Below, piece by piece: positions 31,556 to 62,071 of a DNA stretch of 64,000 bases. The DNA lies in the IMG/VR virus record IMGVR_UViG_3300005613_000021, positions 32,537 to 96,536 of that record; one strand, 5' to 3'. Numbering within the stretch: the stretch's first letter is position 1; each line of letters opens with the position of its first letter. The stretch is from a virus. The notes below the pieces were generated by a model, which was not told the origin of the DNA, searched no databases, and saw nothing but the letters and a program-made list of their open reading frames with translations. The translations under genes and the position numbers were made by a program.

Positions 31556-32226
31556 TTCCAGCCTTCCTCATATCCTAAGATGGTTTCGGGTATATTGCTA
31601 GTATCTTGTTGATAACTAGATAACTGTCTTATAATAGATACACCATTGTTATGGTCAAGTTTATCAATATCTATTGATAAATTCACACTTTCTAAATATT
31701 TTATAGCGTTTATATTTAATCTTTTACATAGAACGTCCATAAAATTTAACTGATTATTTGTAATCTTACCAGCATTATGACCATCAATATCGTCTTCTAT
31801 TTCTTCTGCAATTTCTTCAGCAGCAACAACTTTACGAAGCTTTAAACCTCTTCTAAGAGCCCTTCCTTCAGCCCTTGTTTCCGCAACAGCCACTGGATGA
31901 TTTCTGAAAATCTTATCACAATTTCCCCAATATACGTCTGCAGCGCCATTAACAGTCCTGGTTTTAATATGATTGTCCATATCACAATCGTTTAAAACAT
32001 ATGTCACAGAATGAACCACAGTAGCTCTATTGCCATTATTAGGTTCTGGAGACTGAGCAATGGTTGATGATGAGTCAACAACGGTACATTCAAGAGCTAT
32101 TTCAAATATTCTACGCAGACCATCTGTAGTTGGATTGCCTTGAATTTTTTCATCTTCAGACAAAAGCTCTAAAACATAATCTGTCCATTCAATATCGTTA
32201 ATGCTAGGTTTCTTATTTTTACTCAT
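31552..32226 (-). CDS. Rad52/Erf-like single-strand annealing protein (putative)
   Basis: A 224-residue protein. The key stretch, VAVAETRAEGRALRRGLKL near residues 112-130, is the helix shared by many phage single-strand annealing proteins, where an Ala-Glu-x-x-Ala pattern precedes GRALR. A C-terminal helical segment of about 60 residues (ITNNQLNFMDVLCKRLNI) resembles the tail domain of such proteins. GAGGA precedes the ATG. It is next to a zinc ribbon, as seen for recombinases in other phages. The family is assigned by pattern, so a related DNA-binding role is the alternative. Confidence 0.6.
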   Translation of the reverse strand: MSKNKKPSINDIEWTDYVLELLSEDEKIQGNPTTDGLRRIFEIALECTVVDSSSTIAQSPEPNNGNRATVVHSVTYVLNDCDMDNHIKTRTVNGAADVYWGNCDKIFRNHPVAVAETRAEGRALRRGLKLRKVVAAEEIAEEIEDDIDGHNAGKITNNQLNFMDVLCKRLNINAIKYLESVNLSIDIDKLDHNNGVSIIRQLSSYQQDTSNIPETILGYEEGWK

Positions 32227-32992
32227 TGTTGTCCTCTATATGAAATAATTTTTCCTTTGAATTTTGTATATATCCCAAAGTTTTCATTAATCTATCAGCA
32301 ATCAAATGCGCTCTTGCTTTGGAATAGTCCTTTGTCTGTTTTATTCTAATCAATTTCATTCCTTTGCCAAGTATAAGTCCCGTTTTCTTTTCGTCGTACC
32401 TTTTATTTCTACTTAAAGAATCCTCTCCCCACACAGGCTCAAAATGAGAAGGACCATCAACTTCTATTGCTACATTTTTTTCTGGAACATAAATATCAAT
32501 TTGAAGTTTAGTATTTGCTAAAACTTCCTCTTTATGAAATTCCGGTTTGAATCCACCTTCTATTAAACTAGCTAATAAAAATTTTTCTAATTTAGATCCT
32601 TCTACACTAGATTTTCTAATGGCTATATGTGCAGAATGTAGCATATTTTGCTTTTGTACTTCATCAAGATTATCCCATCTTTTTTTGCTGTCTAATTTTC
32701 TTTTTTTTCTTTCTTTTTCAGATAGACTGTCCCATGCATTATAGACACCCATAGATATTTTATTTTTCTCATTTTCTGTTCTACTTTTGCCCATAGTAGG
32801 ATGAACAGCTTTTCCTTCACTCAACACATTTTTTTGTGCTTCGCTTTTAGTTCTAATTGGTATATTGAATTTTATCGCGTCTCTTCTGATTTTATTTGGG
32901 TATGTATCGTATTTTTGTGCTATTTCACCAAAAGACATTTTTTTTTCTATATATAATTGATAAAGAAGTTTTCTTTTATTGGTGTCATTCAT
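32219..32992 (-). CDS. Vsr-like (EDxHD-type) homing endonuclease, free-standing
   Basis: A protein of about 257 residues. The N-terminal 45 residues look like a helix-turn-helix (MSFGEIAQKYDTYPNKIRRD). A basic NUMOD-like linker follows. The C-terminal half is a PD-(D/E)XK-type nuclease with the line LQIDIYVP then VAIEVDGPSHFEP, the E-V-D-G-x-x-H form of Vsr-related homing enzymes. An upstream in-frame ATG exists at 33004, but the ATG at 32992 fits the ATGAATGA overlap with the previous stop better. The gene lies between a recombination gene and an unknown gene, as a mobile intruder would. It shares architecture with the endonuclease in the polymerase locus. Confidence 0.75.
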   Translation of the reverse strand: MNDTNKRKLLYQLYIEKKMSFGEIAQKYDTYPNKIRRDAIKFNIPIRTKSEAQKNVLSEGKAVHPTMGKSRTENEKNKISMGVYNAWDSLSEKERKKRKLDSKKRWDNLDEVQKQNMLHSAHIAIRKSSVEGSKLEKFLLASLIEGGFKPEFHKEEVLANTKLQIDIYVPEKNVAIEVDGPSHFEPVWGEDSLSRNKRYDEKKTGLILGKGMKLIRIKQTKDYSKARAHLIADRLMKTLGYIQNSKEKLFHIEDNNE

Positions 32993-33389
32993 TTGCTGGT
33001 ACATTTAAAATATCCTTTATAGACTTAATATTCTTGATATCATCATACTTTTCTTTGAACTGTTGGAATAATTCTAGATTATCATAGATGTAATATTTAT
33101 GGTGCGGATATATTTGTGGTAAATCAATCAATCCCTCGTCCATAATAATGACATCTTTTGCATCGCTGACTAAATAATATGTATTAAATTGAGGAATAAA
33201 AACATTATGTTTTACTTGTATTTCATCACAGTATATAGCATAATTGAATTCTTTTTTAAAGTCATTGTTCAAAGACAACATTAACAATTCTTTAAAACAC
33301 GCACTATCATAATGAGTCTGATTGAATTTTGAACAAGCCAGAGCTAAATGTCTTGATACATATTCATATTGTTGTCTTTTTTGTGTCAT
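32985..33389 (-). CDS. Unknown protein
   Basis: A 134-residue soluble protein preceded by TAGGAT. It contains alternating strands and helices with aromatic residues (NTYYLVSDAKDVIIMDEG). No membrane segment or recognisable motif. It follows the glycosyltransferase group and is probably co-transcribed with it. I cannot assign a function. Confidence 0.6.
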   Translation of the reverse strand: MTQKRQQYEYVSRHLALACSKFNQTHYDSACFKELLMLSLNNDFKKEFNYAIYCDEIQVKHNVFIPQFNTYYLVSDAKDVIIMDEGLIDLPQIYPHHKYYIYDNLELFQQFKEKYDDIKNIKSIKDILNVPANE

Positions 33390-38063: not shown

Positions 38064-38091
38064 ATTGTATTCTCTGTCCGTATTTTGTCAA
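38064..38091 (-). promoter_or_regulatory. Sigma-70-like promoter for ssb
   Basis: Read on the minus strand, TTGACA (38091-38086) and TACAAT (38069-38064) are separated by 16 bases. The -35 box overlaps the TGA stop of the polymerase C-terminal gene. This is the best consensus promoter I find in the window. Confidence 0.7.
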
Positions 38092-39203
38092 GCTTGTGGA
38101 ATAAAAATCTTTTCTGCTATCAAACTATCTTTTTCCTTGGATCTTGTACCTTTAATTATTACAATATTGTTATCAAATAGAATATTTTGATAGGTTCTAT
38201 AAGCTTCTGGAAAAACTATTACAGAATCTAAAACTCCGGTATTGTCTGACATACTAACAAAGGCCATTTCAGCACCTTTGTTTTTACCAGATTTAGTTTT
38301 TACAACATTGATATTCTCTATTTCTCCAGCAATTACAATATGTTGTTGATGTGTTTTTAAAAATTCTCCACAAGTACAATTAGTGTGCGAAACATCATAC
38401 ATATCAATTTTTGAGCAGGATATTGAGTATCCCAGTAATTCGTATTCTTTATCAGATATCCACTCTATTGAATCCTCTAGGTCAAATGGTGGCTTGTCTA
38501 TCGAATTAATATGGCTTTGTACAACATTTTTTCTTCTGGTGGTTATTTTATCTTTTAGAAGACTATTTAGTATTTTTTTAAGATTTGAATTATTAGTAAT
38601 GTATTTTTTACAAATCTCTATTTCTTTCTTTGTCAGATCACTAGCAATAGAGTATTCAAATAACATCTTATTTCTACTTTGATTATAATGATCCATAGCT
38701 CCAGAAGATATCAAGCCTTTAACTGCTGTACTATTAATATTTAGTAGTACATTAAACAACAAGTCTGTCCAGCTTGTATTTTCTATTACTGATTCATCTG
38801 TCAGGGTTAAGAGTTTATTGAATACGGATTGTCCAACTCCTTTGATGTCTGTTAGTCCAAAGTATATGATTTTATTCTTTAATACAAAATATCTATTGAG
38901 TTTTCTTATGTCTGGAGTAGACACATGAATATTCATTTGAGAAGCATTTTGAATCAATTCTTTAATTTCTTGTTGAGAATCTATTTTATCTTTAGCAAAT
39001 TTCAAGTATGAAGCAAAAAAAGTTCTAGTGAAGTGAGCTTTGCTGTATGCTGATAGGTATGCGTTCATGGCATAGCTCACAGCATGTGAGTTGGACGTTG
39101 CTATTCCATTAGCATAGAATAAATGTTTATCATTATTTACTTCAATGTCTTTTGTTGGTTTAATTCCAATTTTGCTAATTCTTGTAATTTTTGCATTACG
39201 CAT
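38088..39203 (-). CDS. dnaE: Split-intein C half fused to the C-terminal piece of DNA polymerase III alpha
   Basis: A 371-residue protein. Residues 1-38 are the C half of a split intein, ending ANGIATSN. From Ser39 the sequence is polymerase (SHAVSYAMNAYLSAYSKAHF), matching the DnaE segment that follows YGFNK in bacterial enzymes. It continues through the fingers/helix-hairpin-helix region (GLTDIKGVGQSVFNKL) to an OB domain near 270-365. The bacterial tau-binding tail is absent. A GGGAG seven bases before the ATG lies inside the overlapping endonuclease gene. Trans-splicing with the middle piece at 40082-40966 would join YSFNK to SHAV. Splicing is inferred. Confidence 0.93.
   Translation of the reverse strand: MRNAKITRISKIGIKPTKDIEVNNDKHLFYANGIATSNSHAVSYAMNAYLSAYSKAHFTRTFFASYLKFAKDKIDSQQEIKELIQNASQMNIHVSTPDIRKLNRYFVLKNKIIYFGLTDIKGVGQSVFNKLLTLTDESVIENTSWTDLLFNVLLNINSTAVKGLISSGAMDHYNQSRNKMLFEYSIASDLTKKEIEICKKYITNNSNLKKILNSLLKDKITTRRKNVVQSHINSIDKPPFDLEDSIEWISDKEYELLGYSISCSKIDMYDVSHTNCTCGEFLKTHQQHIVIAGEIENINVVKTKSGKNKGAEMAFVSMSDNTGVLDSVIVFPEAYRTYQNILFDNNIVIIKGTRSKEKDSLIAEKIFIPQA
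39090..39203 (-). other. Split intein C half in polymerase (IntC, 38 residues)
   Basis: It contains a block-F-like DIEVNNDKHLFYANG and ends in Ser-Asn, with Ser as the first residue after the junction. The penultimate residue is Ser where His is common. Length and wording closely resemble the short C halves of the gp41-1 group of phage split inteins. Confidence 0.9.
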
Positions 39204-40051
39204 TGTTTTTCTCCCAGAACTTCATTTTCCCAAAACCTTATTAATTTATGACCATGCTCTTGACAAAACTGATTTTTCTTTACATCTCTGTATCTGTTTA
39301 TTTTTTGAGTATTTGTTTTCGGTCCATCTGGATAAATTTTTGGATTACTATGAAAATAATCTCCATCTATTTCTATAAGAACATTATAACTAGGAAGATA
39401 GAAGTCAAAAGCCCAACTTCCAATTATATATTCTTTTTCGTATTGTATGTTATTTTGTTTTAATATTTCTGCAAACTTTCTTGCTGGCAAAGTATCTGTT
39501 TGTGGAAACTCTCCATTTTTTATTCTTTTTAGTGTTGCTTGTCTCATTAATTCCTTGGAATATTCAGAATGTTTATGTCCTGTATGTCCATGTATATTTC
39601 TTTTTTTTGCTGAAATAGACTGCTTTGTTTTTGTTTCTTTTTTTACGATTCTTCCTGTTTGTTTTTTAGACATTAATTTACCATACTCTGAATTCTTTTT
39701 ATTCAGACCTATGTTCCAGGGTTTCATTCCAAACATTGGATTGGCTTTTCCCTGTCTTGTTGTCTTTGCTTTTTCAGACCATTCTATTACTCCTGGGTTT
39801 CTTCCACACGCAAGTTTTGACCATCTAAATAAACTACCATCCTTAATTATTTTTAGTTTCTTTTTACATTTTTTACAGGGACATTCAGGACCTTCTCCAA
39901 AATACTGTTCTTTGTTCATTTTGTGTTCATTTTTTAGATGTAATAAAAAATAATCTGTTTTATAACAGCCTCTTTGTTTGTATTGTTCACTTATTTCTTC
40001 TATTGTTTTTCTACAAATACGACAAACAGAAAAGCTTATTGGTGTATACAT
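39137..40051 (-). CDS. Vsr-like homing endonuclease between the two split-intein halves
   Basis: A 304-residue protein. The N-terminus has two Cys/His clusters (CRICRK..., CPCKKCKKK), probably zinc-binding. The middle carries NUMOD3-like motifs (NPMFGMKPWNIGL). The C-terminal third is a PD-(D/E)XK domain with FDFYLP then VLIEIDGDYFHSNP, the EDxHD pattern of Vsr-related homing enzymes. AGGAGA lies seven bases before the ATG. It lies exactly between the polymerase piece ending in IntN and the one starting with IntC, and its last 67 bases overlap IntC in another frame. It probably cuts intron- or intein-free polymerase alleles to spread this locus. Confidence 0.9.
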   Translation of the reverse strand: MYTPISFSVCRICRKTIEEISEQYKQRGCYKTDYFLLHLKNEHKMNKEQYFGEGPECPCKKCKKKLKIIKDGSLFRWSKLACGRNPGVIEWSEKAKTTRQGKANPMFGMKPWNIGLNKKNSEYGKLMSKKQTGRIVKKETKTKQSISAKKRNIHGHTGHKHSEYSKELMRQATLKRIKNGEFPQTDTLPARKFAEILKQNNIQYEKEYIIGSWAFDFYLPSYNVLIEIDGDYFHSNPKIYPDGPKTNTQKINRYRDVKKNQFCQEHGHKLIRFWENEVLGEKQCVMQKLQELAKLELNQQKTLK

Positions 40052-40081
40052 TAGTATGTCTCCTATTAAGAAATCTCATGC

Positions 40082-40966
40082 TTATTCATACACCATTATG
40101 TCTAAGTCCATAGCAATAATTTCCCATAAAGGATGTTTTTCTCCATCGTTACATAAAAATTTATGATCAAGAGTACACGTTATGGTATAATCTCCATCAA
40201 GCTCTATTTCAAATACTTCTTTTTTTCCACTGTCAATGACATCTAAAACTTCCGTATATTGATCACCATCGGATGTTGGACATAAGACCATATCTCCAAC
40301 TTTTATATCGTCAAGGGTTTTTATTCCATCGGGCGTTTGAACAACTGTTGATGGGTCTAAGCATTTATTAAATGAATATCTTTGGCTTTTTTCAATCCAT
40401 GAAAAAATCTGATTTGCTTGATCTTGAGAGATGATATCCATTTTTTGGCATCCAGACAAAAACTTATCTTTAAGTTTAGCCATTTCGTCTGCCTTTTTTT
40501 TGCCGATGGCTTTTCTAAGCATGTCTGCTTCTTGTAGGTTAAACCCAGCGAGATCTTTAGCTATTTGCATCGCCTGCTCCTGGTATACCATTTCTCCAAA
40601 AGTATTAGATAAAATTGGCTCCAGAGATGGATGAAAATAATCTACGGACTCAAGGCCATTTTTCTTGTCTATAAAGTGAGAACTAACGGTTTTCCCATCA
40701 CGCACAACTTCCAAACATCCCGGCCTCATAATACTAATTAGTGCAGATAATTGTTCTATGGAATTAGGCCTGAGTTTTTTTGACATACTTCTACCAAGCC
40801 TAGACTCTAATTGAAAACACCCTTTAGTGTTTCCGCTAGATATCAAATCCCACGTAAGAGAGCAGTCCAAATTGATATTATTGATATCCGGATCAAAAAT
40901 TATATTGCCTTGCTCATCTAAAGGGAATTTACATCCACATTTTTTATATTCAAAATATTTGGTCAT
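40082..40966 (-). CDS. dnaE: Middle piece of DNA polymerase III alpha fused to a split-intein N half
   Basis: A 294-residue protein. Residues 1-201 are DnaE: a KKCGCKFP opening, then TWDLISSGNTKGCFQLES, SALISIMRPG, GEMVYQEQAMQIA and ADMLRKAIGKKKADEM, ending WIEKSQRYSFNK. Cys202 begins a 93-residue intein N half. The ATG overlaps the stop of the exonuclease gene (ATGA). No intein sequence is found at its own N-terminus, so its link to the N-terminal piece (41823-43700) must be non-covalent. It is needed with the other two pieces for a working polymerase. Trans-splicing to the C-terminal piece is inferred from the intein motifs. Confidence 0.93.
   Translation of the reverse strand: MTKYFEYKKCGCKFPLDEQGNIIFDPDINNINLDCSLTWDLISSGNTKGCFQLESRLGRSMSKKLRPNSIEQLSALISIMRPGCLEVVRDGKTVSSHFIDKKNGLESVDYFHPSLEPILSNTFGEMVYQEQAMQIAKDLAGFNLQEADMLRKAIGKKKADEMAKLKDKFLSGCQKMDIISQDQANQIFSWIEKSQRYSFNKCLDPSTVVQTPDGIKTLDDIKVGDMVLCPTSDGDQYTEVLDVIDSGKKEVFEIELDGDYTITCTLDHKFLCNDGEKHPLWEIIAMDLDIMVYE
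40085..40363 (-). other. Split intein N half in polymerase (IntN, 93 residues)
   Basis: It starts CLDPSTVVQTPDGIK with the nucleophilic Cys. It has IKVGDMVL (block A end) and a block-B TLDH inside YTITCTLDHKFL. It stops at the gene end after MVYE, with no endonuclease or C-terminal blocks. The pattern is that of gp41-1-type split inteins. Confidence 0.92.
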
Positions 40967-41646
40967 GCAAAAGAATTCCTAAATTTAATCTTTTTTGCTT
41001 GATTTCTATGAAGCCTTAAAAACCTTGTTAAAATTTCTGCACAATCTTGAACATCTTTTAGTGCGTCATGAGCATTGTCTTTTGACATACCAAAATAATC
41101 CCTCATATTATCCAAAGACAAGCTTTTTATTTCGCTGTTGTTCTCAAACCACAAAAACATCAAATGCATAAGATCTAGTTTATCTCTAGGATGAAAAATA
41201 TTATTGCTTTTATCTTTGCCAACATTTTTATATTTATTTGCTAACCTATCAATGATAGGTATATCAAATCTTAGTATATTGTAACCAGCTGCTATAGGGG
41301 CTGAAAACATACTTTTTCTAGAAGATCTAGTATGATATTTATCTAGATAGTTAATAAACTGGTTCCAAGATTGTTTTTGAGAAGGATACTTTTTCCAATT
41401 TTCTAAAATTTCAGTTGATGTACACTGTTGTGCTTTTGCATGAAATTCTAGAAGATCTATACCATATTCATGACTAGGATTTTGGTCTAAAAGCTCAGGC
41501 TTAAAATTAATATTAAATTCAGAATTAGGAATGATTTCTAATTTATCTGGATCTATCATTATGCAGGCCAATTGCACAGGACTACATTCGTTTGGATCTT
41601 TACCGTCTGTTTCGAAATCAAAAACACATATTTTATTTTTCAACAA
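40963..41646 (-). CDS. DnaQ-like DEDDh 3'-5' exonuclease (proofreading)
   Basis: A 227-residue protein of the DnaQ superfamily, which removes mispaired 3' ends. ExoI is the CVFDFETDG segment with Asp10 and Glu12. ExoII is GYNILRFDIPII, and ExoIII is NAHDALKDVQDC with His and Asp. The start is TTG (followed by a second TTG), chosen because AGGAGG lies nine bases upstream. No ATG is available nearby. Sitting between two pieces of the polymerase gene and coupled by ATGA to the middle piece, it very probably works as the proofreading partner. Confidence 0.92.
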   Translation of the reverse strand: MLKNKICVFDFETDGKDPNECSPVQLACIMIDPDKLEIIPNSEFNINFKPELLDQNPSHEYGIDLLEFHAKAQQCTSTEILENWKKYPSQKQSWNQFINYLDKYHTRSSRKSMFSAPIAAGYNILRFDIPIIDRLANKYKNVGKDKSNNIFHPRDKLDLMHLMFLWFENNSEIKSLSLDNMRDYFGMSKDNAHDALKDVQDCAEILTRFLRLHRNQAKKIKFRNSFA

Positions 41647-41821
41647 TTCTTACTACCTCCTCTAGTGGTCTAAAAACAGCTGTGGTTTTACCATCTTGTG
41701 TTTTTGCATTTAGTTTGATTTTACAACACGAGACTCTTTCTTCCTTTACTTTAATATATCTTGTATTAACCTGTCCAGCCTTAATAAAAATGTCGTTGAT
41801 TTTTAAGTCTTTAAATTTCAT
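41633..41821 (-). CDS. Small protein between polymerase N-terminal piece and exonuclease
   Basis: A 62-residue protein beginning MKFKDLKINDIFI and predicted to be mostly beta (a small barrel, judged by strand alternation). It starts one base after the stop of the polymerase N-terminal piece and its end overlaps the exonuclease start, so it is a genuine, tightly packed gene. No family is recognised. Given its position it might bridge the separate polymerase pieces. Confidence 0.65.
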   Translation of the reverse strand: MKFKDLKINDIFIKAGQVNTRYIKVKEERVSCCKIKLNAKTQDGKTTAVFRPLEEVVRIVEK

Positions 41822-41822
41822 T

Positions 41823-43700
41823 TTAAACTCCCATTTTTAGCATTTCGGAAACATTCATAATTTTATCTAGGACTGCGACTCCTAGAATATCAAATTTAAT
41901 TACCCCTATGCTTTCGAGATCTTGCATTTCCATACCAGCTATAAGATTTTTGTTTTTTGTATCATAAACCATAGGGCAAATATTTGTTAGTGGTTCTGGG
42001 GCTATTACCACACCAGCAGCATGTTTGGATTGATTTGTTTTTGTTCCTTCTAGTCTAATAGCTTGTTCAAAGCGTTTTGACAAGGGACCACTGAGATTTC
42101 CATCATTATCTATAGAACACCACTCTTTCAAGTCCTTAGCCTTGTTCTCTAAGGCCCACTTGATAATAGATGCTTCACCATATTCTTTTTTCATTTCCTG
42201 TAATTCATCAGAAATTTTAGCTTCATCAGGAATGTTTTTAGTGATCTTATTCATGTCTTCAAATGATAGGTTTCCGTATACTCTGAGCACGTCTTTTAAA
42301 GAACCTCGACCTTTCATGGTATTAAATGTTAACATTTGAGAAACTTTGTCAGATCCATAAGTTTGCTTTATATAGTCAATTATATTTTCTCTTTTATCAA
42401 TTGGAACATCGATATCAATATCTGGCATGGACACTCTATCTTTAGTATTCCTGCCAGCATTATAGAATCTATCAAAAAGTAAATCATATTTCATTGGATC
42501 GATAGATGTAATTCCAAGAAGATATGACACTAAACAGCCTGCTGCGCTCCCTCTCCCTGGTCCCGGAAGCCAATTGGACTGTCTTATATGATGCACTATG
42601 TCTTGAACAATTAAAAAATAGCTAGATAAATTTGCTCCATGAAGCACATTAAATTCATATTTAAGTCTTTTAACATACTTATCTTGTTCTTCTTTAGATA
42701 AACTATTAAGGTTATGACTCCTCCATCCTGTTCTACACAAATCTCTTAGGTAGTCTGAATCTGATTCATATTTTTTAGGAAATTTAAAAGGAGGAAGTAC
42801 GGGATGGCTGAGTATATCATATTCCTCACATAAAGAATCTACATAAATAGTATTGTCTATTTCTTCTTCTGTGTGTAGATAGGACATTTCTTCTGGAGAT
42901 GGTATATAATACTTATCACTATTAAAAAAACAAGATAGCGGTACGGGCATGTTGGTCTGTAGTTTGTGATTTATTTGAGATAAAGTAGTCTTCATATTAT
43001 TACAAAGCAGTATTCTTTGATCTACAGCATCGCTCTGATTTGCGTAGTGAGCATCTGGTGTGCATATAACCTTGGCGCCCGACAGATCTCCAAGAGTTCT
43101 TATACATTCTGTTAGTTCTATCTGTATAGAATTAATGTCTTTATCTATTAATTGTGCTTCTAGAAAGACATTACCTTGACCAAAAACATCTGTTAGTTTA
43201 TCTATATGATTTTTTCCATTCTTTTTCCAATCATCATCTATAGCATCATTAGTCATTACCTGTCTTGCTAACGTAGAACCTAAATGCCCAGTAATGGCCA
43301 ATATATTTCCGTCAAGCAAATCCCCAAGAGTATCTAAGTCAAGTCTTGGCTTATGATAATATCTATCTGGATTATTGCTCTCAGATACAATCTTTATTAA
43401 AGTTTTCCATCCTGCTAAATTTTTTGCCAAAACAACAAGATGGTCAAGTTTGGTGTTTTCTTTATTTTTTTCTTTAGAACAAGATTTAGATATATATAAC
43501 TCACAACCTAAAATAGGCTTGATGTTATTTGCTCTTAAGTGACTAAAAAATTGAACAGTACCTGAAATTGAACCATGATCGGTGATGGCGCATGATGACA
43601 CGCCAATATTTTTACATCTTTTTACAATATCAGAAGGTTTACTAAGTCCATCCAATAAAGAATAATGCGTATGTACATGGAGGGGGACGTAATTTTTCAT
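41823..43700 (-). CDS. dnaE: N-terminal piece of DNA polymerase III alpha (PHP and palm)
   Basis: A 625-residue protein. The PHP domain begins at once (LHVHTHYSLLDG at 7-18, CAITDHGSISG, GCELYIS). The polymerase palm follows with GPGRGSAAG at 380-388 and the catalytic PDIDIDVP at 426-433. The third carboxylate lies in VIKFDILG near residue 604. The protein ends soon after, where a bacterial DnaE would continue to the segment found in the gene at 40082-40966. PHP metal ligands look largely intact, so it could have nuclease activity. No intein sequence is present at the end, so the pieces must assemble without splicing here. Confidence 0.95.
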   Translation of the reverse strand: MKNYVPLHVHTHYSLLDGLSKPSDIVKRCKNIGVSSCAITDHGSISGTVQFFSHLRANNIKPILGCELYISKSCSKEKNKENTKLDHLVVLAKNLAGWKTLIKIVSESNNPDRYYHKPRLDLDTLGDLLDGNILAITGHLGSTLARQVMTNDAIDDDWKKNGKNHIDKLTDVFGQGNVFLEAQLIDKDINSIQIELTECIRTLGDLSGAKVICTPDAHYANQSDAVDQRILLCNNMKTTLSQINHKLQTNMPVPLSCFFNSDKYYIPSPEEMSYLHTEEEIDNTIYVDSLCEEYDILSHPVLPPFKFPKKYESDSDYLRDLCRTGWRSHNLNSLSKEEQDKYVKRLKYEFNVLHGANLSSYFLIVQDIVHHIRQSNWLPGPGRGSAAGCLVSYLLGITSIDPMKYDLLFDRFYNAGRNTKDRVSMPDIDIDVPIDKRENIIDYIKQTYGSDKVSQMLTFNTMKGRGSLKDVLRVYGNLSFEDMNKITKNIPDEAKISDELQEMKKEYGEASIIKWALENKAKDLKEWCSIDNDGNLSGPLSKRFEQAIRLEGTKTNQSKHAAGVVIAPEPLTNICPMVYDTKNKNLIAGMEMQDLESIGVIKFDILGVAVLDKIMNVSEMLKMGV

Positions 43701-59970: not shown

Positions 59971-60131
59971 CTGTTAAATACCCTATCTAAAAGATCTTTA
60001 AGGGGTCTTTTTACTGGCTTAGGAGAAACTATATCTTTATTTTTGGTGGCAAATATTTTTATGATCGATAATATAAAATCGGTTATAATTTTAATAAATC
60101 TATTTAGAGCAACTTTATCTAAAAATTTCAT
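59967..60131 (-). CDS. Small amphipathic or membrane protein (54 residues)
   Basis: A gene too small for routine calling. It starts at an ATG overlapping the peptidase stop (ATGA at 60131-60128) and ends with TGA overlapping the next ATG (59970). It encodes MKFLDKVALNRFIK, then a hydrophobic IITDFILSIIKIF segment and a basic tail with PKPVKRP. The double overlap supports that it is real. It may be membrane-bound. Confidence 0.6.
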   Translation of the reverse strand: MKFLDKVALNRFIKIITDFILSIIKIFATKNKDIVSPKPVKRPLKDLLDRVFNR

Positions 60132-62071
60132 AAGTAATCTCCAAAACCGTAATCTGGAAGTTTTTGAGGAGGAAATCCATTAAAATCACTAAAGGCATAA
60201 GCTCCGTTTTGCCTTAACATACCTTCGGCCACATCGGCGTGTATTAAAAAAGAACCATCTGGGATAGGCCCCCATTCTGGATGACCGCCAGAGTTCCAGC
60301 TGTTGCCGCACCATACCGCCCTACCATTACGCCTAACATACATTATATGATTAGGTACTGTGGCGCAATAAATTTTACCATTATATGGCAATAATATCGG
60401 AGTTGTACCATTGGATTCTCTTGGTGTTAAAGATATTGCTTTAATGTTTAGCCTGTACTCTTTGTGTCTTGTGATGTTTTTATTGTTATTTTTACCATTA
60501 TCTCTTCCAATTCTATTAATCTCTATAATATCAGCAGCCATGCCTATTTTTAATATAAGTTCTTGCATGTCGTCGGCTAATTGTTTGGAAGATGTATAAA
60601 AATTCATTTTACCATTACTAATTGATCCGTCGCCTAACATAATAGCGTCAAAAAAAATCTTTTGTTGTCTGGAAGATAAGTCTTTCACATAATTAGGAAT
60701 ATGCTTTTGGTGTGCTTTACCAAATATTTTTAATTCGTTGTACAAAGACTTGTCATAACACACCATATTTTTAGAAAACTTAAACGGCAAATTATCTAAA
60801 CATTTTTTCATCATTAGTTGAGAATCTAGTTTGTATTGACTAATTCCAATATGACCATAACTTTTGGTTTCTCCACTAGATAATACTTTATTATGCAGGG
60901 ATGCGTGACCTTCTGATATAAAATAACCCAAAAACTCTAGCCATAAATCCATGGCAATGATGTGTTTGCCTATTTTAATATTTAATATTTCCTTACCGTT
61001 CCATTTAGCATTTTTTTTGATGTGTAAATACTTAGGACAATTTTTTGATTCAACTATACTCCAAGAGGCCGGATTGTCTAAATCTGAATGTAATTTACCA
61101 ATATACATGTTATGATTATCTGTGACAAGTAAATCAACGCCTCTGAAATGATAGTGATTTAAATAACCATTGTAATTATATTCAAATTTTTCTTGTATTT
61201 GTTGCCATTCTAGATTGTGATTATTGGGGTTGAGAGTAGCCAATATGTCGCTATCTGATAGATTTTTAAAAAATTTCCAACCTTCTTTAGTAAGTACCTC
61301 GGTATCATCTGAATAACAACCCCAAGAATTTTGAACTAAAAATGAAGGTTCTCCATCTGTATCATCACAAGCCGACCAGCACATCGCATGTGCCCATGAG
61401 CCACTTTTACGAGCAAACCCCTTAGAGTCTCTACGATTAGAAAATCCATAACTGGAACATACACTTAAACCATAACCATTAGCTAAAGCATCTCTAGCTT
61501 CTTCTACTGTTTTTATTAATGATACTGTTCTTATTTGATGATCATCTGCTAAATCTATAATATCATCCGGAATCCCTCTACTGCCCCACCCCTTACTAAG
61601 TCTTGGCTGATATTTTGTTAAATCAATGATACCAGGATAGTTTTTGCGTAATAGTATTCCTCCTGTTTTACTAACAAAAGTAGCGGCCCTAGAACAACTC
61701 ATCCCTTCTCCGCCGTGACCCCTAAATCCATAAATCCCCTCTGTTGCACCAAGAGATATCCAGCTTTCTTTGTCGCCCTTAATGTCTATCTCTACTGCTC
61801 TTGTTAAATCACAAGCATTCCTAGTTGCGAAACTTACACAATCCCCCTGCTGTTGCCTTGTTGTATAAGCGTTCTTATCAAATTTCAATACAGATTTAAA
61901 AGGTGTAGATAGCTTACCTTTTCCACTATCTTTAATACGCTTTGCTCCATCTTTAAAATAGGCGTATTTACTAGTCTCTATAAGTTCATCAAATATGTGC
62001 TGCTCCCACAAGCATCCACTAAAACCTTTACGATATTCGTTATAGAGTTGATCTGGTGTCATTCTTGGCAT
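60128..62071 (-). CDS. Papain-like cysteine peptidase with an in-frame intein
   Basis: A 647-residue reading frame. Exteins are residues 1-251 and 591-647, together 308 residues of C1-type peptidase: RQQQGDCVSFA with Cys78 as nucleophile, GSWAHAMCW with His228, and VQNSWG with Asn248. Between NSWG and SWNSGGHPEWG lies a 339-residue intein (252-590). No signal peptide is seen. After splicing the catalytic triad is complete. It sits among membrane proteins. Virion maturation, lysis or attack on a host protein are all possible. Confidence 0.88.
   Translation of the reverse strand: MPRMTPDQLYNEYRKGFSGCLWEQHIFDELIETSKYAYFKDGAKRIKDSGKGKLSTPFKSVLKFDKNAYTTRQQQGDCVSFATRNACDLTRAVEIDIKGDKESWISLGATEGIYGFRGHGGEGMSCSRAATFVSKTGGILLRKNYPGIIDLTKYQPRLSKGWGSRGIPDDIIDLADDHQIRTVSLIKTVEEARDALANGYGLSVCSSYGFSNRRDSKGFARKSGSWAHAMCWSACDDTDGEPSFLVQNSWGCYSDDTEVLTKEGWKFFKNLSDSDILATLNPNNHNLEWQQIQEKFEYNYNGYLNHYHFRGVDLLVTDNHNMYIGKLHSDLDNPASWSIVESKNCPKYLHIKKNAKWNGKEILNIKIGKHIIAMDLWLEFLGYFISEGHASLHNKVLSSGETKSYGHIGISQYKLDSQLMMKKCLDNLPFKFSKNMVCYDKSLYNELKIFGKAHQKHIPNYVKDLSSRQQKIFFDAIMLGDGSISNGKMNFYTSSKQLADDMQELILKIGMAADIIEINRIGRDNGKNNNKNITRHKEYRLNIKAISLTPRESNGTTPILLPYNGKIYCATVPNHIMYVRRNGRAVWCGNSWNSGGHPEWGPIPDGSFLIHADVAEGMLRQNGAYAFSDFNGFPPQKLPDYGFGDYL
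60302..61318 (-). other. Contiguous LAGLIDADG intein in the peptidase
   Basis: Residues 252-590. It starts CYSDDTEVLTKEGW (Cys1) with block-B TDNH in LLVTDNHNMYI. A dodecapeptide endonuclease has LGYFISEGH (381-389) and IMLGDGS (477-483). It ends VPNHIMYVRRNGRAVWCGN, with Ser as +1. The penultimate residue is Gly instead of His. The site follows the catalytic Asn motif directly. Confidence 0.9.

What the first reader, a model, noticed from the sequence alone, without database searches (positions are those of the whole stretch)
38088..40966. Fractured DNA polymerase: gp41-1-like split intein with a homing endonuclease between its halves
The polymerase middle piece ends in a 93-residue intein N half starting at Cys202, and the C-terminal piece starts with a 38-residue C half followed by Ser. 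In between lies a same-strand Vsr-like endonuclease gene. Fractured phage genes of this kind, found in environmental sequences, gave the fast-splicing gp41-1, NrdJ-1 and IMPDH-1 inteins. The wording here (CLDPSTVVQTP; KHLFYANGIATSN) looks closest to gp41-1. The junction, after YSFNK and before SHAV, is four residues downstream of the cyanobacterial split DnaE intein site.
Basis: partly seen in the sequence, partly recalled or inferred. Interest (0 to 1): 0.88.

Follow-up and report, generated by a model that had tools for sequence, protein, structure and literature searches.

The report
Phage polymerase split by mobile intein
In this phage the gene for the C-terminal part of its DNA polymerase is broken in two by a mobile DNA cassette (two halves of a self-splicing protein element with a DNA-cutting enzyme gene between them), and related phages show the same site empty, unbroken, broken, decayed and scattered, so how natural split inteins arise can be studied at one spot.

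Summary
Confirmed. The ORF at 40082-40966(-) ends in a 93-aa intein N half starting at Cys202. The ORF at 38088-39203(-) starts with a 38-aa C half followed by Ser. A 304-aa homing-endonuclease gene (39137-40051) lies between. It is of the Vsr/EDxHD kind: the top fold and sequence match is I-Bth0305I, then Vsr. Many relatives, the nearest 80-86% identical in DnaE, have the uninterrupted site YSFNK|SHAV, so the cassette is a 1274-nt insertion.

It belongs to the known class of 'fractured genes'. It is not specifically gp41-1: its closest kin are 14 other DnaE cassettes at the same site. I found that site also with contiguous mini-inteins, with LAGLIDADG genes between the halves (once on the opposite strand), with an endonuclease fossil (L260), and with halves about 5 kb or more apart (L267/G001).

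The cassette moves. Two phages share it at 90% DNA identity while their polymerase synonymous sites are saturated or nearly so. In the window the +1 Ser codon matches other carriers, not its empty relatives. In that pair both intein and endonuclease are under purifying selection.

Splicing and cutting are inferred, not shown. The locus is a new member of a known kind; the allelic series is the interesting part.

The parts
41823..43700 (-). DnaE N-terminal subunit (PHP and palm), separate gene, 625 aa; not split by an intein
   Evidence: Pfam PHP and DNA_pol3_alpha; also a separate gene in empty-site relatives
40963..41646 (-). DnaQ-like 3'-5' exonuclease gene lying between the two DnaE genes
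   Evidence: Pfam RNase_T 5.7e-9
40364..40966 (-). N-extein: DnaE finger-domain piece, residues 1-201, ending YSFNK
   Evidence: Pfam DNA_pol3_finger 3.4e-46; 84-93% identical in relatives that read on into SHAV
40085..40363 (-). Split intein N half (IntN), 93 aa, Cys1 to Glu93
   Evidence: PDB gp41-1 E 1.1e-10 and DnaE intein 3.3e-10; 73% identical IntN with flanking extein residues at the same site in L253
39137..40051 (-). Free-standing Vsr/EDxHD-like homing endonuclease gene, 304 aa, with own Shine-Dalgarno
   Evidence: Sequence and fold match to I-Bth0305I 3r3p, then Vsr; phrog_9084 3.6e-14; 66% identical in L253
39090..39203 (-). Split intein C half (IntC), 38 aa, MRNAKI...GIATSN; start codon and Shine-Dalgarno inside the endonuclease gene
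   Evidence: 76% identical in L253
38088..39089 (-). C-extein: DnaE helix-hairpin-helix and OB-fold piece, 333 aa, starting Ser+1 (SHAVSY)
   Evidence: Pfam HHH_6 and tRNA_anti-codon; relatives
39090..40363 (-). Whole mobile cassette, 1274 nt, inserted between the FNK and SHA codons
   Evidence: Empty sites in relatives; same cassette in 14 other loci

Best explanation
A mobile split-intein cassette inserted in a conserved codon stretch of a phage dnaE C-terminal-subunit gene. Shown from sequence: two extein-intein fusion genes with a separate Vsr/EDxHD-like endonuclease gene between them, all on one strand; precise empty sites in relatives; movement of whole cassettes between phage lineages; purifying selection on intein and endonuclease in the one pair where it could be measured. 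Inferred: the endonuclease cuts intein-less dnaE alleles of co-infecting phages at or near the FNK|S codons; repair from the carrier copies the whole IntN-endonuclease-IntC unit plus some flanking DNA; the two polypeptides associate through IntN and IntC and splice in trans (class 1: Cys1, branched ester on Ser+1, Asn cyclisation), joining FNK to SHA and giving an intact ~534-aa DnaE C-terminal subunit, which works with the separate 625-aa PHP-palm subunit.
For: Anatomy and catalytic residues. Empty sites in relatives, the window nested inside a clade of empties (100/97). Endonuclease fold nearest I-Bth0305I and Vsr. Same cassette at the same site in 14 other loci, all with the endonuclease end overlapping the IntC start. 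L311/L312 cassettes 90% identical in DNA with dS 0.3-0.6, exteins saturated or near saturated, identity rising toward the junction. Window +1 Ser codon TCA, all eight nearest empties AGY. dN/dS 0.07-0.14 for IntN, endonuclease, IntC in L311/L312.
Against: No splicing or cleavage was measured. The cassette in the window is known from one assembled contig. The first-helix Glu of I-Bth0305I is not conserved in this endonuclease subfamily, so its exact active site is unsure. Among carriers, extein and cassette distances are also correlated, so part of the pattern may be vertical descent with loss.
Confidence: 0.87

Rival explanations
1. The intein halves no longer splice; the polymerase works as three non-covalently assembled pieces with the intein halves as inert tails.
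For: The DnaE of these phages already works as two separate polypeptides in empty-site relatives, so a further non-covalent break is conceivable. No splicing data exist.
Against: All catalytic residues are kept in all EDxHD-type carriers; dN/dS of IntN and IntC is 0.07-0.10 in the closest pair; IntN and IntC stay intact in L260 where the endonuclease has decayed.
Confidence: 0.06
2. The intein is specifically a gp41-1-type intein that moved into DnaE.
For: gp41-1 is the best solved-structure sequence match of both halves; shared words CLD..T.VQTP and HLFYAN. The AU test does not reject a joint clade (p 0.15).
Against: The tree puts it with other inteins at the same DnaE site and gp41-1 with gp41-8; penultimate Ser instead of His; the fold of the contiguous homologue L266 matches DnaE inteins better than gp41-1.
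Confidence: 0.12
3. The cassette is old and inherited vertically; empty relatives lost it precisely.
For: Among carriers the closest pair by extein (window, L253) is also close by cassette; distances correlate overall.
Against: Window and L253 lie in different well-supported clades of empties, so many separate exact losses would be needed; the +1 Ser codon of the eight nearest empties is AGY, not the carriers' TCN; L311/L312 cassettes are far closer than their exteins.
Confidence: 0.07

Closest known systems
'Fractured genes' with split inteins and free-standing Vsr-related (EDxHD) homing endonucleases (Dassa et al. 2009, doi 10.1093/nar/gkp095; not held, known through citing papers and memory)
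   Same: Conserved phage enzyme gene broken in two by a split intein with a separate endonuclease gene between the halves; endonuclease related to Vsr
   Different: Host gene and site here are dnaE FNK|S; whether dnaE was among their eight enzyme types could not be checked. Here the same site is seen in many further states.
gp41-1 split intein (PDB 6qaz)
   Same: IntN and IntC lengths, Cys1 and Ser+1, best solved-structure sequence match
   Different: Ser-Asn instead of His-Asn end; groups with gp41-8, not with this intein, in the tree
Cyanobacterial split DnaE intein (Npu, Ssp)
   Same: Same host protein, split DnaE, neighbouring site, Ser-Asn end; best fold match of the contiguous homologue L266
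   Different: Site four residues upstream with Cys+1; halves far apart and no endonuclease gene (established knowledge)
I-Bth0305I (EDxHD homing endonuclease, PDB 3r3p; reviewed in PMC3943268)
   Same: Nuclease domain: top sequence and fold match
   Different: I-Bth0305I sits in a group I intron; this one is free-standing between intein halves and its N-terminal ~180 aa are different; first-helix Glu not conserved
Split PolB with HNH gene in phage MIJ3 (PMC6892783); split nrdA of Aeh1 (PMC3653736) and of Campylobacter phage CPt10 (L156)
   Same: Cultured phages with a replication or nucleotide gene broken in two by a split intein
   Different: Other host genes and, in MIJ3, another endonuclease family

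Membership tests
Split intein (class 1) | IntN with Cys1 and block-B TxxH; IntC with block-F His and terminal Asn; nucleophile at +1 | tested here: met
   Sequence and alignment with carriers and reference inteins
Split intein (class 1) | Halves encoded by separate genes, split at the usual endonuclease point | tested here: met
   93 + 38 aa in separate ORFs, insert not a multiple of 3; usual split lengths about 100 and 40 aa (PMC11923092)
Split intein (class 1) | Trans-splicing activity | not testable with these tools
   Needs expression of both halves
Fractured gene (Dassa et al. 2009) | Conserved enzyme gene broken by a split intein with a free-standing endonuclease gene between | tested here: met
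   Anatomy plus empty sites
EDxHD/Vsr-like homing endonuclease | Vsr/I-Bth0305I-like nuclease fold | tested here: met
   3r3p E 1e-4, TM 0.80 on target; Vsr 1cw0 and 1vsr next; phmmer 3r3p 0.0024
EDxHD/Vsr-like homing endonuclease | Conserved catalytic motif residues | tested here: inconclusive
   D216, E227, H234, D256 and K259 invariant in 11 relatives, but the first-helix Glu seen in I-Bth0305I is replaced
EDxHD/Vsr-like homing endonuclease | Mobility of the element into empty sites | tested here: met
   Comparative evidence only: L311/L312 transfer and codon signature in the window
gp41-1 intein type | Groups with gp41 inteins in a tree | tested here: inconclusive
   Free tree separates them; joint clade costs 17.6 lnL but p-AU 0.15
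Cyanobacterial split DnaE intein allele | Insertion before CFNK with Cys+1 | tested here: not met
   Insertion after FNK with Ser+1

The most novel reading that the evidence does not exclude
One insertion site in phage dnaE holds every stage in the life of a split intein: empty; contiguous mini-intein; contiguous intein apparently with embedded HNH; intein cut in two by a free-standing endonuclease gene of either of two unrelated families (EDxHD, or LAGLIDADG, once on the opposite strand); split with only an endonuclease fossil; split with halves kilobases apart. This would show that naturally split inteins are made repeatedly by endonuclease genes invading an intein, and that dispersed split DnaE inteins like the cyanobacterial ones are an end stage.
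Probability: 0.4. Interest if true: 0.78.

Novelty: new member of a known kind. Interest (0 to 1): 0.6.

Why it matters
How naturally split inteins arise is a long-standing question; an endonuclease gene invading an intein was proposed as the missing link. Here one site in one gene offers matched alleles for each step, including a decayed endonuclease between intact intein halves (L260) and halves moved apart (L267/G001), so order, reversibility and cost can be tested directly. The diverged natural IntN/IntC pairs with Ser+1 are also candidates for new orthogonal trans-splicing tools, and the endonuclease subfamily marks a preferred target inside a conserved polymerase motif.

Tried and rejected
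A single-protein search for the window endonuclease in viral contigs found nothing; the family appeared only with alignment queries. L088 and L101 seemed to match into IntC but are empty-site relatives. The idea that the whole three-piece polymerase is due to inteins was rejected: the PHP-palm break exists in empty relatives too and carries no Hint sequence. Whether the EDxHD-type split inteins form one clade apart from contiguous ones is neither shown nor rejected (p-AU 0.37), so the number and direction of split events within that group are open. The host of the phage was not determined; cultured phages match this DnaE stretch at under 45% identity. The Dassa 2009, Carvajal-Vallejos 2012 and Taylor 2011 papers are not held, so their gene lists could not be checked. 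A genome-contig scan with the endonuclease found one 3-kb MAG contig (L310) with the same cassette, probably a phage fragment. A search of the window's own record found no second copy of this endonuclease.

Full report
OBSERVATION. The window is bases 32537-96536 of a 96.5-kb virus record. The three ORFs are as described. The 294-aa ORF 40082-40966(-) ends in an intein N half from Cys202 to Glu294 (nt 40363..40085). The 371-aa ORF 38088-39203(-) begins with a 38-aa intein C half (nt 39203..39090) followed by Ser39. The 304-aa ORF 39137-40051(-) lies between. The insert is 1274 nt; as this is not a multiple of three, the two extein halves cannot be read as one frame. The endonuclease gene starts 30 nt after the IntN stop behind AGGAG, and the IntC start codon, with its own GGGAG, lies inside the 3' end of the endonuclease gene (67-nt overlap).

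EMPTY SITES. DNA encoding relatives of the two extein pieces shows the uninterrupted junction YSFNK|SH[AS][VI]SY. In a tree of 90 DnaE C-terminal subunits (66 empty, 15 split carriers, 9 contiguous carriers) the window lies inside a clade of empties (support 100/97); its nearest empties are 79.5-86% identical. The boundary FNK|S is therefore set by comparison, not by motif guess.

THE POLYMERASE. The PHP-palm part (625 aa, 41823-43700) is a separate gene also in empty relatives, with a DnaQ-like exonuclease gene (and in the window a 62-aa ORF) before the C-terminal subunit gene. Splicing therefore restores the C-terminal subunit, not a full-length DnaE.

THE ENDONUCLEASE. Sequence: PDB 3r3p (I-Bth0305I) E 0.0024, Pfam DUF559 1.1e-7, a PHROG annotated homing endonuclease 3.6e-14. 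Structure: an AlphaFold model from 11 relatives (mean pLDDT 79, nuclease domain about 84-92) has I-Bth0305I as top PDB match (E 1e-4, TM 0.80 on the target) and E. coli Vsr next. D216, E227, G230, H234, R255-D256, K259 and W274-E275 are invariant in 11 relatives. The Glu of the first helix seen in I-Bth0305I is not conserved in this subfamily.

A FAMILY AT ONE SITE. Alignment-based scans brought further alleles at exactly this site. Split intein with EDxHD-type endonuclease: 15 distinct loci including the window (L253, L157, L238, L254, L255, L257, L259, L261, L311, L312, L313, L241, L242, L310), all with the endonuclease end overlapping the IntC start by 19-67 nt. Split with a LAGLIDADG gene on the same strand: L265, L273; on the opposite strand: L271. 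Split without an endonuclease gene: L260, whose 189-nt spacer still reads IEVDGDY*HSNPKIYPNGP...KIIRFWESDI, the tail of the EDxHD-type endonuclease with an in-frame stop. Contiguous: L266, L268, L283, L287, L288, L308, L325, phages NiceHouse, Grayson and MT835601; L291 and L292 are contiguous with what looks, by eye only, like an embedded HNH stretch. Halves apart: L267, with IntN at 138.6 kb and the IntC-extein gene at 1.66 kb of a 142-kb contig (G001), both on the + strand, so at least 4.95 kb of unrelated genes lie between if the genome is circular or circularly permuted. The contig ends show no overlap, so the true distance is open.

MOVEMENT. (1) L311 and L312 have cassettes 90% identical in DNA over 1297 nt (dS 0.63 IntN, 0.31 endonuclease, 0.56 IntC), while the extein synonymous sites are saturated (C side) or near so (dS 2.4, N side) and the extein proteins are 57% (C) and 81% (N) identical. 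Their exteins are no closer to each other (64%) than L311 is to L313 (66%; L312-L313 75%), yet their endonucleases are 90% identical against 67-68%. Upstream DNA identity climbs toward the junction (60, 73, 77, 85, 87% per 60 nt), as expected of co-conversion, though part of this may be protein conservation. (2) In the window the +1 Ser codon is TCA and the nearby Val codon GTG, as in carrier L253; all eight nearest empties have AGY and none has GTG. AGY to TCN cannot be reached by single silent changes, so the codon most likely came with the cassette. (3) Among 12 cassettes the endonuclease is more similar than the extein in 60 of 66 pairs, and intein and endonuclease distances correlate (r 0.86) better than endonuclease and extein (0.61). 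(4) dN/dS in L311/L312: IntN 0.07, endonuclease 0.14, IntC 0.10, so all parts were recently under selection there.

INTEIN KINSHIP. The window and L253 inteins are sisters (100/99). The LAGLIDADG-type split inteins are a separate clade (99/97). gp41-1 pairs with gp41-8 (99/93). Deep branches are weak, and AU tests reject neither a gp41 link (p 0.15) nor a single clade of split inteins (p 0.37). The contiguous homologue L266, used as a natural stand-in for the joined halves, is predicted with a Hint fold; Npu DnaE intein is among its best matches (TM 0.64-0.67), gp41-1 lower (0.54-0.62) (moderate model, pLDDT 73).

MECHANISM. Shown by sequence: anatomy, empty sites, lateral transfer, selection. 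Inferred: cutting of empty dnaE, repair from the carrier, association of the halves, class 1 trans-splicing with Cys1 and Ser+1.

LITERATURE. Fractured phage genes with split inteins and Vsr-related endonucleases are known (Dassa et al. 2009, cited in PMC12350094 and PMC6892783; not held here, content partly from memory). EDxHD endonucleases are reviewed in PMC3943268. A split PolB intein with an HNH gene is described in phage MIJ3 (PMC6892783) and a split nrdA in Aeh1 (PMC3653736). The natural split point coincides with the usual endonuclease insertion point (PMC11923092). A search of the held library for DNA polymerase III alpha with split intein and phage gave only a review.

VERDICT. The finding is real. 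It is a new member of a known kind. Its value lies in the allelic series at one site.

Noticed in passing
window 60128-62071 (-): 647-aa ORF that looks like a papain-like peptidase (by eye) interrupted by a contiguous LAGLIDADG-type intein (CYSDDTEVLTKEGW...CGN|SWN); Pfam LAGLIDADG_3 6.1e-8.
   Followed up: partly
window 32219-33004 (-): A second, distantly Vsr/EDxHD-like endonuclease gene in the same phage (phrog_559 6e-16).
   Followed up: partly
window 40963-43700 (-): DnaE encoded as two genes, PHP-palm and fingers-HhH-OB, with a DnaQ-like exonuclease gene between, also in empty-site relatives; not an intein break.
   Followed up: partly
L153 2140-9050 (also L154): Another phage dnaE appears broken by three split inteins at other sites, with Vsr-like endonuclease genes between some halves.
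   Followed up: no
L134 4672-7011 (+): A contiguous intein with an HNH-like stretch at a different site (RPG|C) of the same DnaE C-terminal subunit in an empty-FNK relative.
   Followed up: no
L271 4399-5673 (-): LAGLIDADG gene on the opposite strand between the DnaE intein halves.
   Followed up: partly
L156 2666-6754 (Campylobacter phage CPt10): nrdA annotated only as disrupted: the pieces carry intein N and C halves, and a second contiguous intein lies in the C-terminal piece.
   Followed up: no
L155 2864-4873 (Salicola phage SCTP-2 gene 204): RecA-like protein annotated as hypothetical carries two mini-inteins.
   Followed up: no
upstream of endonuclease starts: window 40049-40073 (-), L257, L312, L313: The leader TTTATTAACAGGAGGCATACTAATG is nearly the same before diverged endonuclease genes, perhaps a control element that moves with the cassette.
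   Followed up: no
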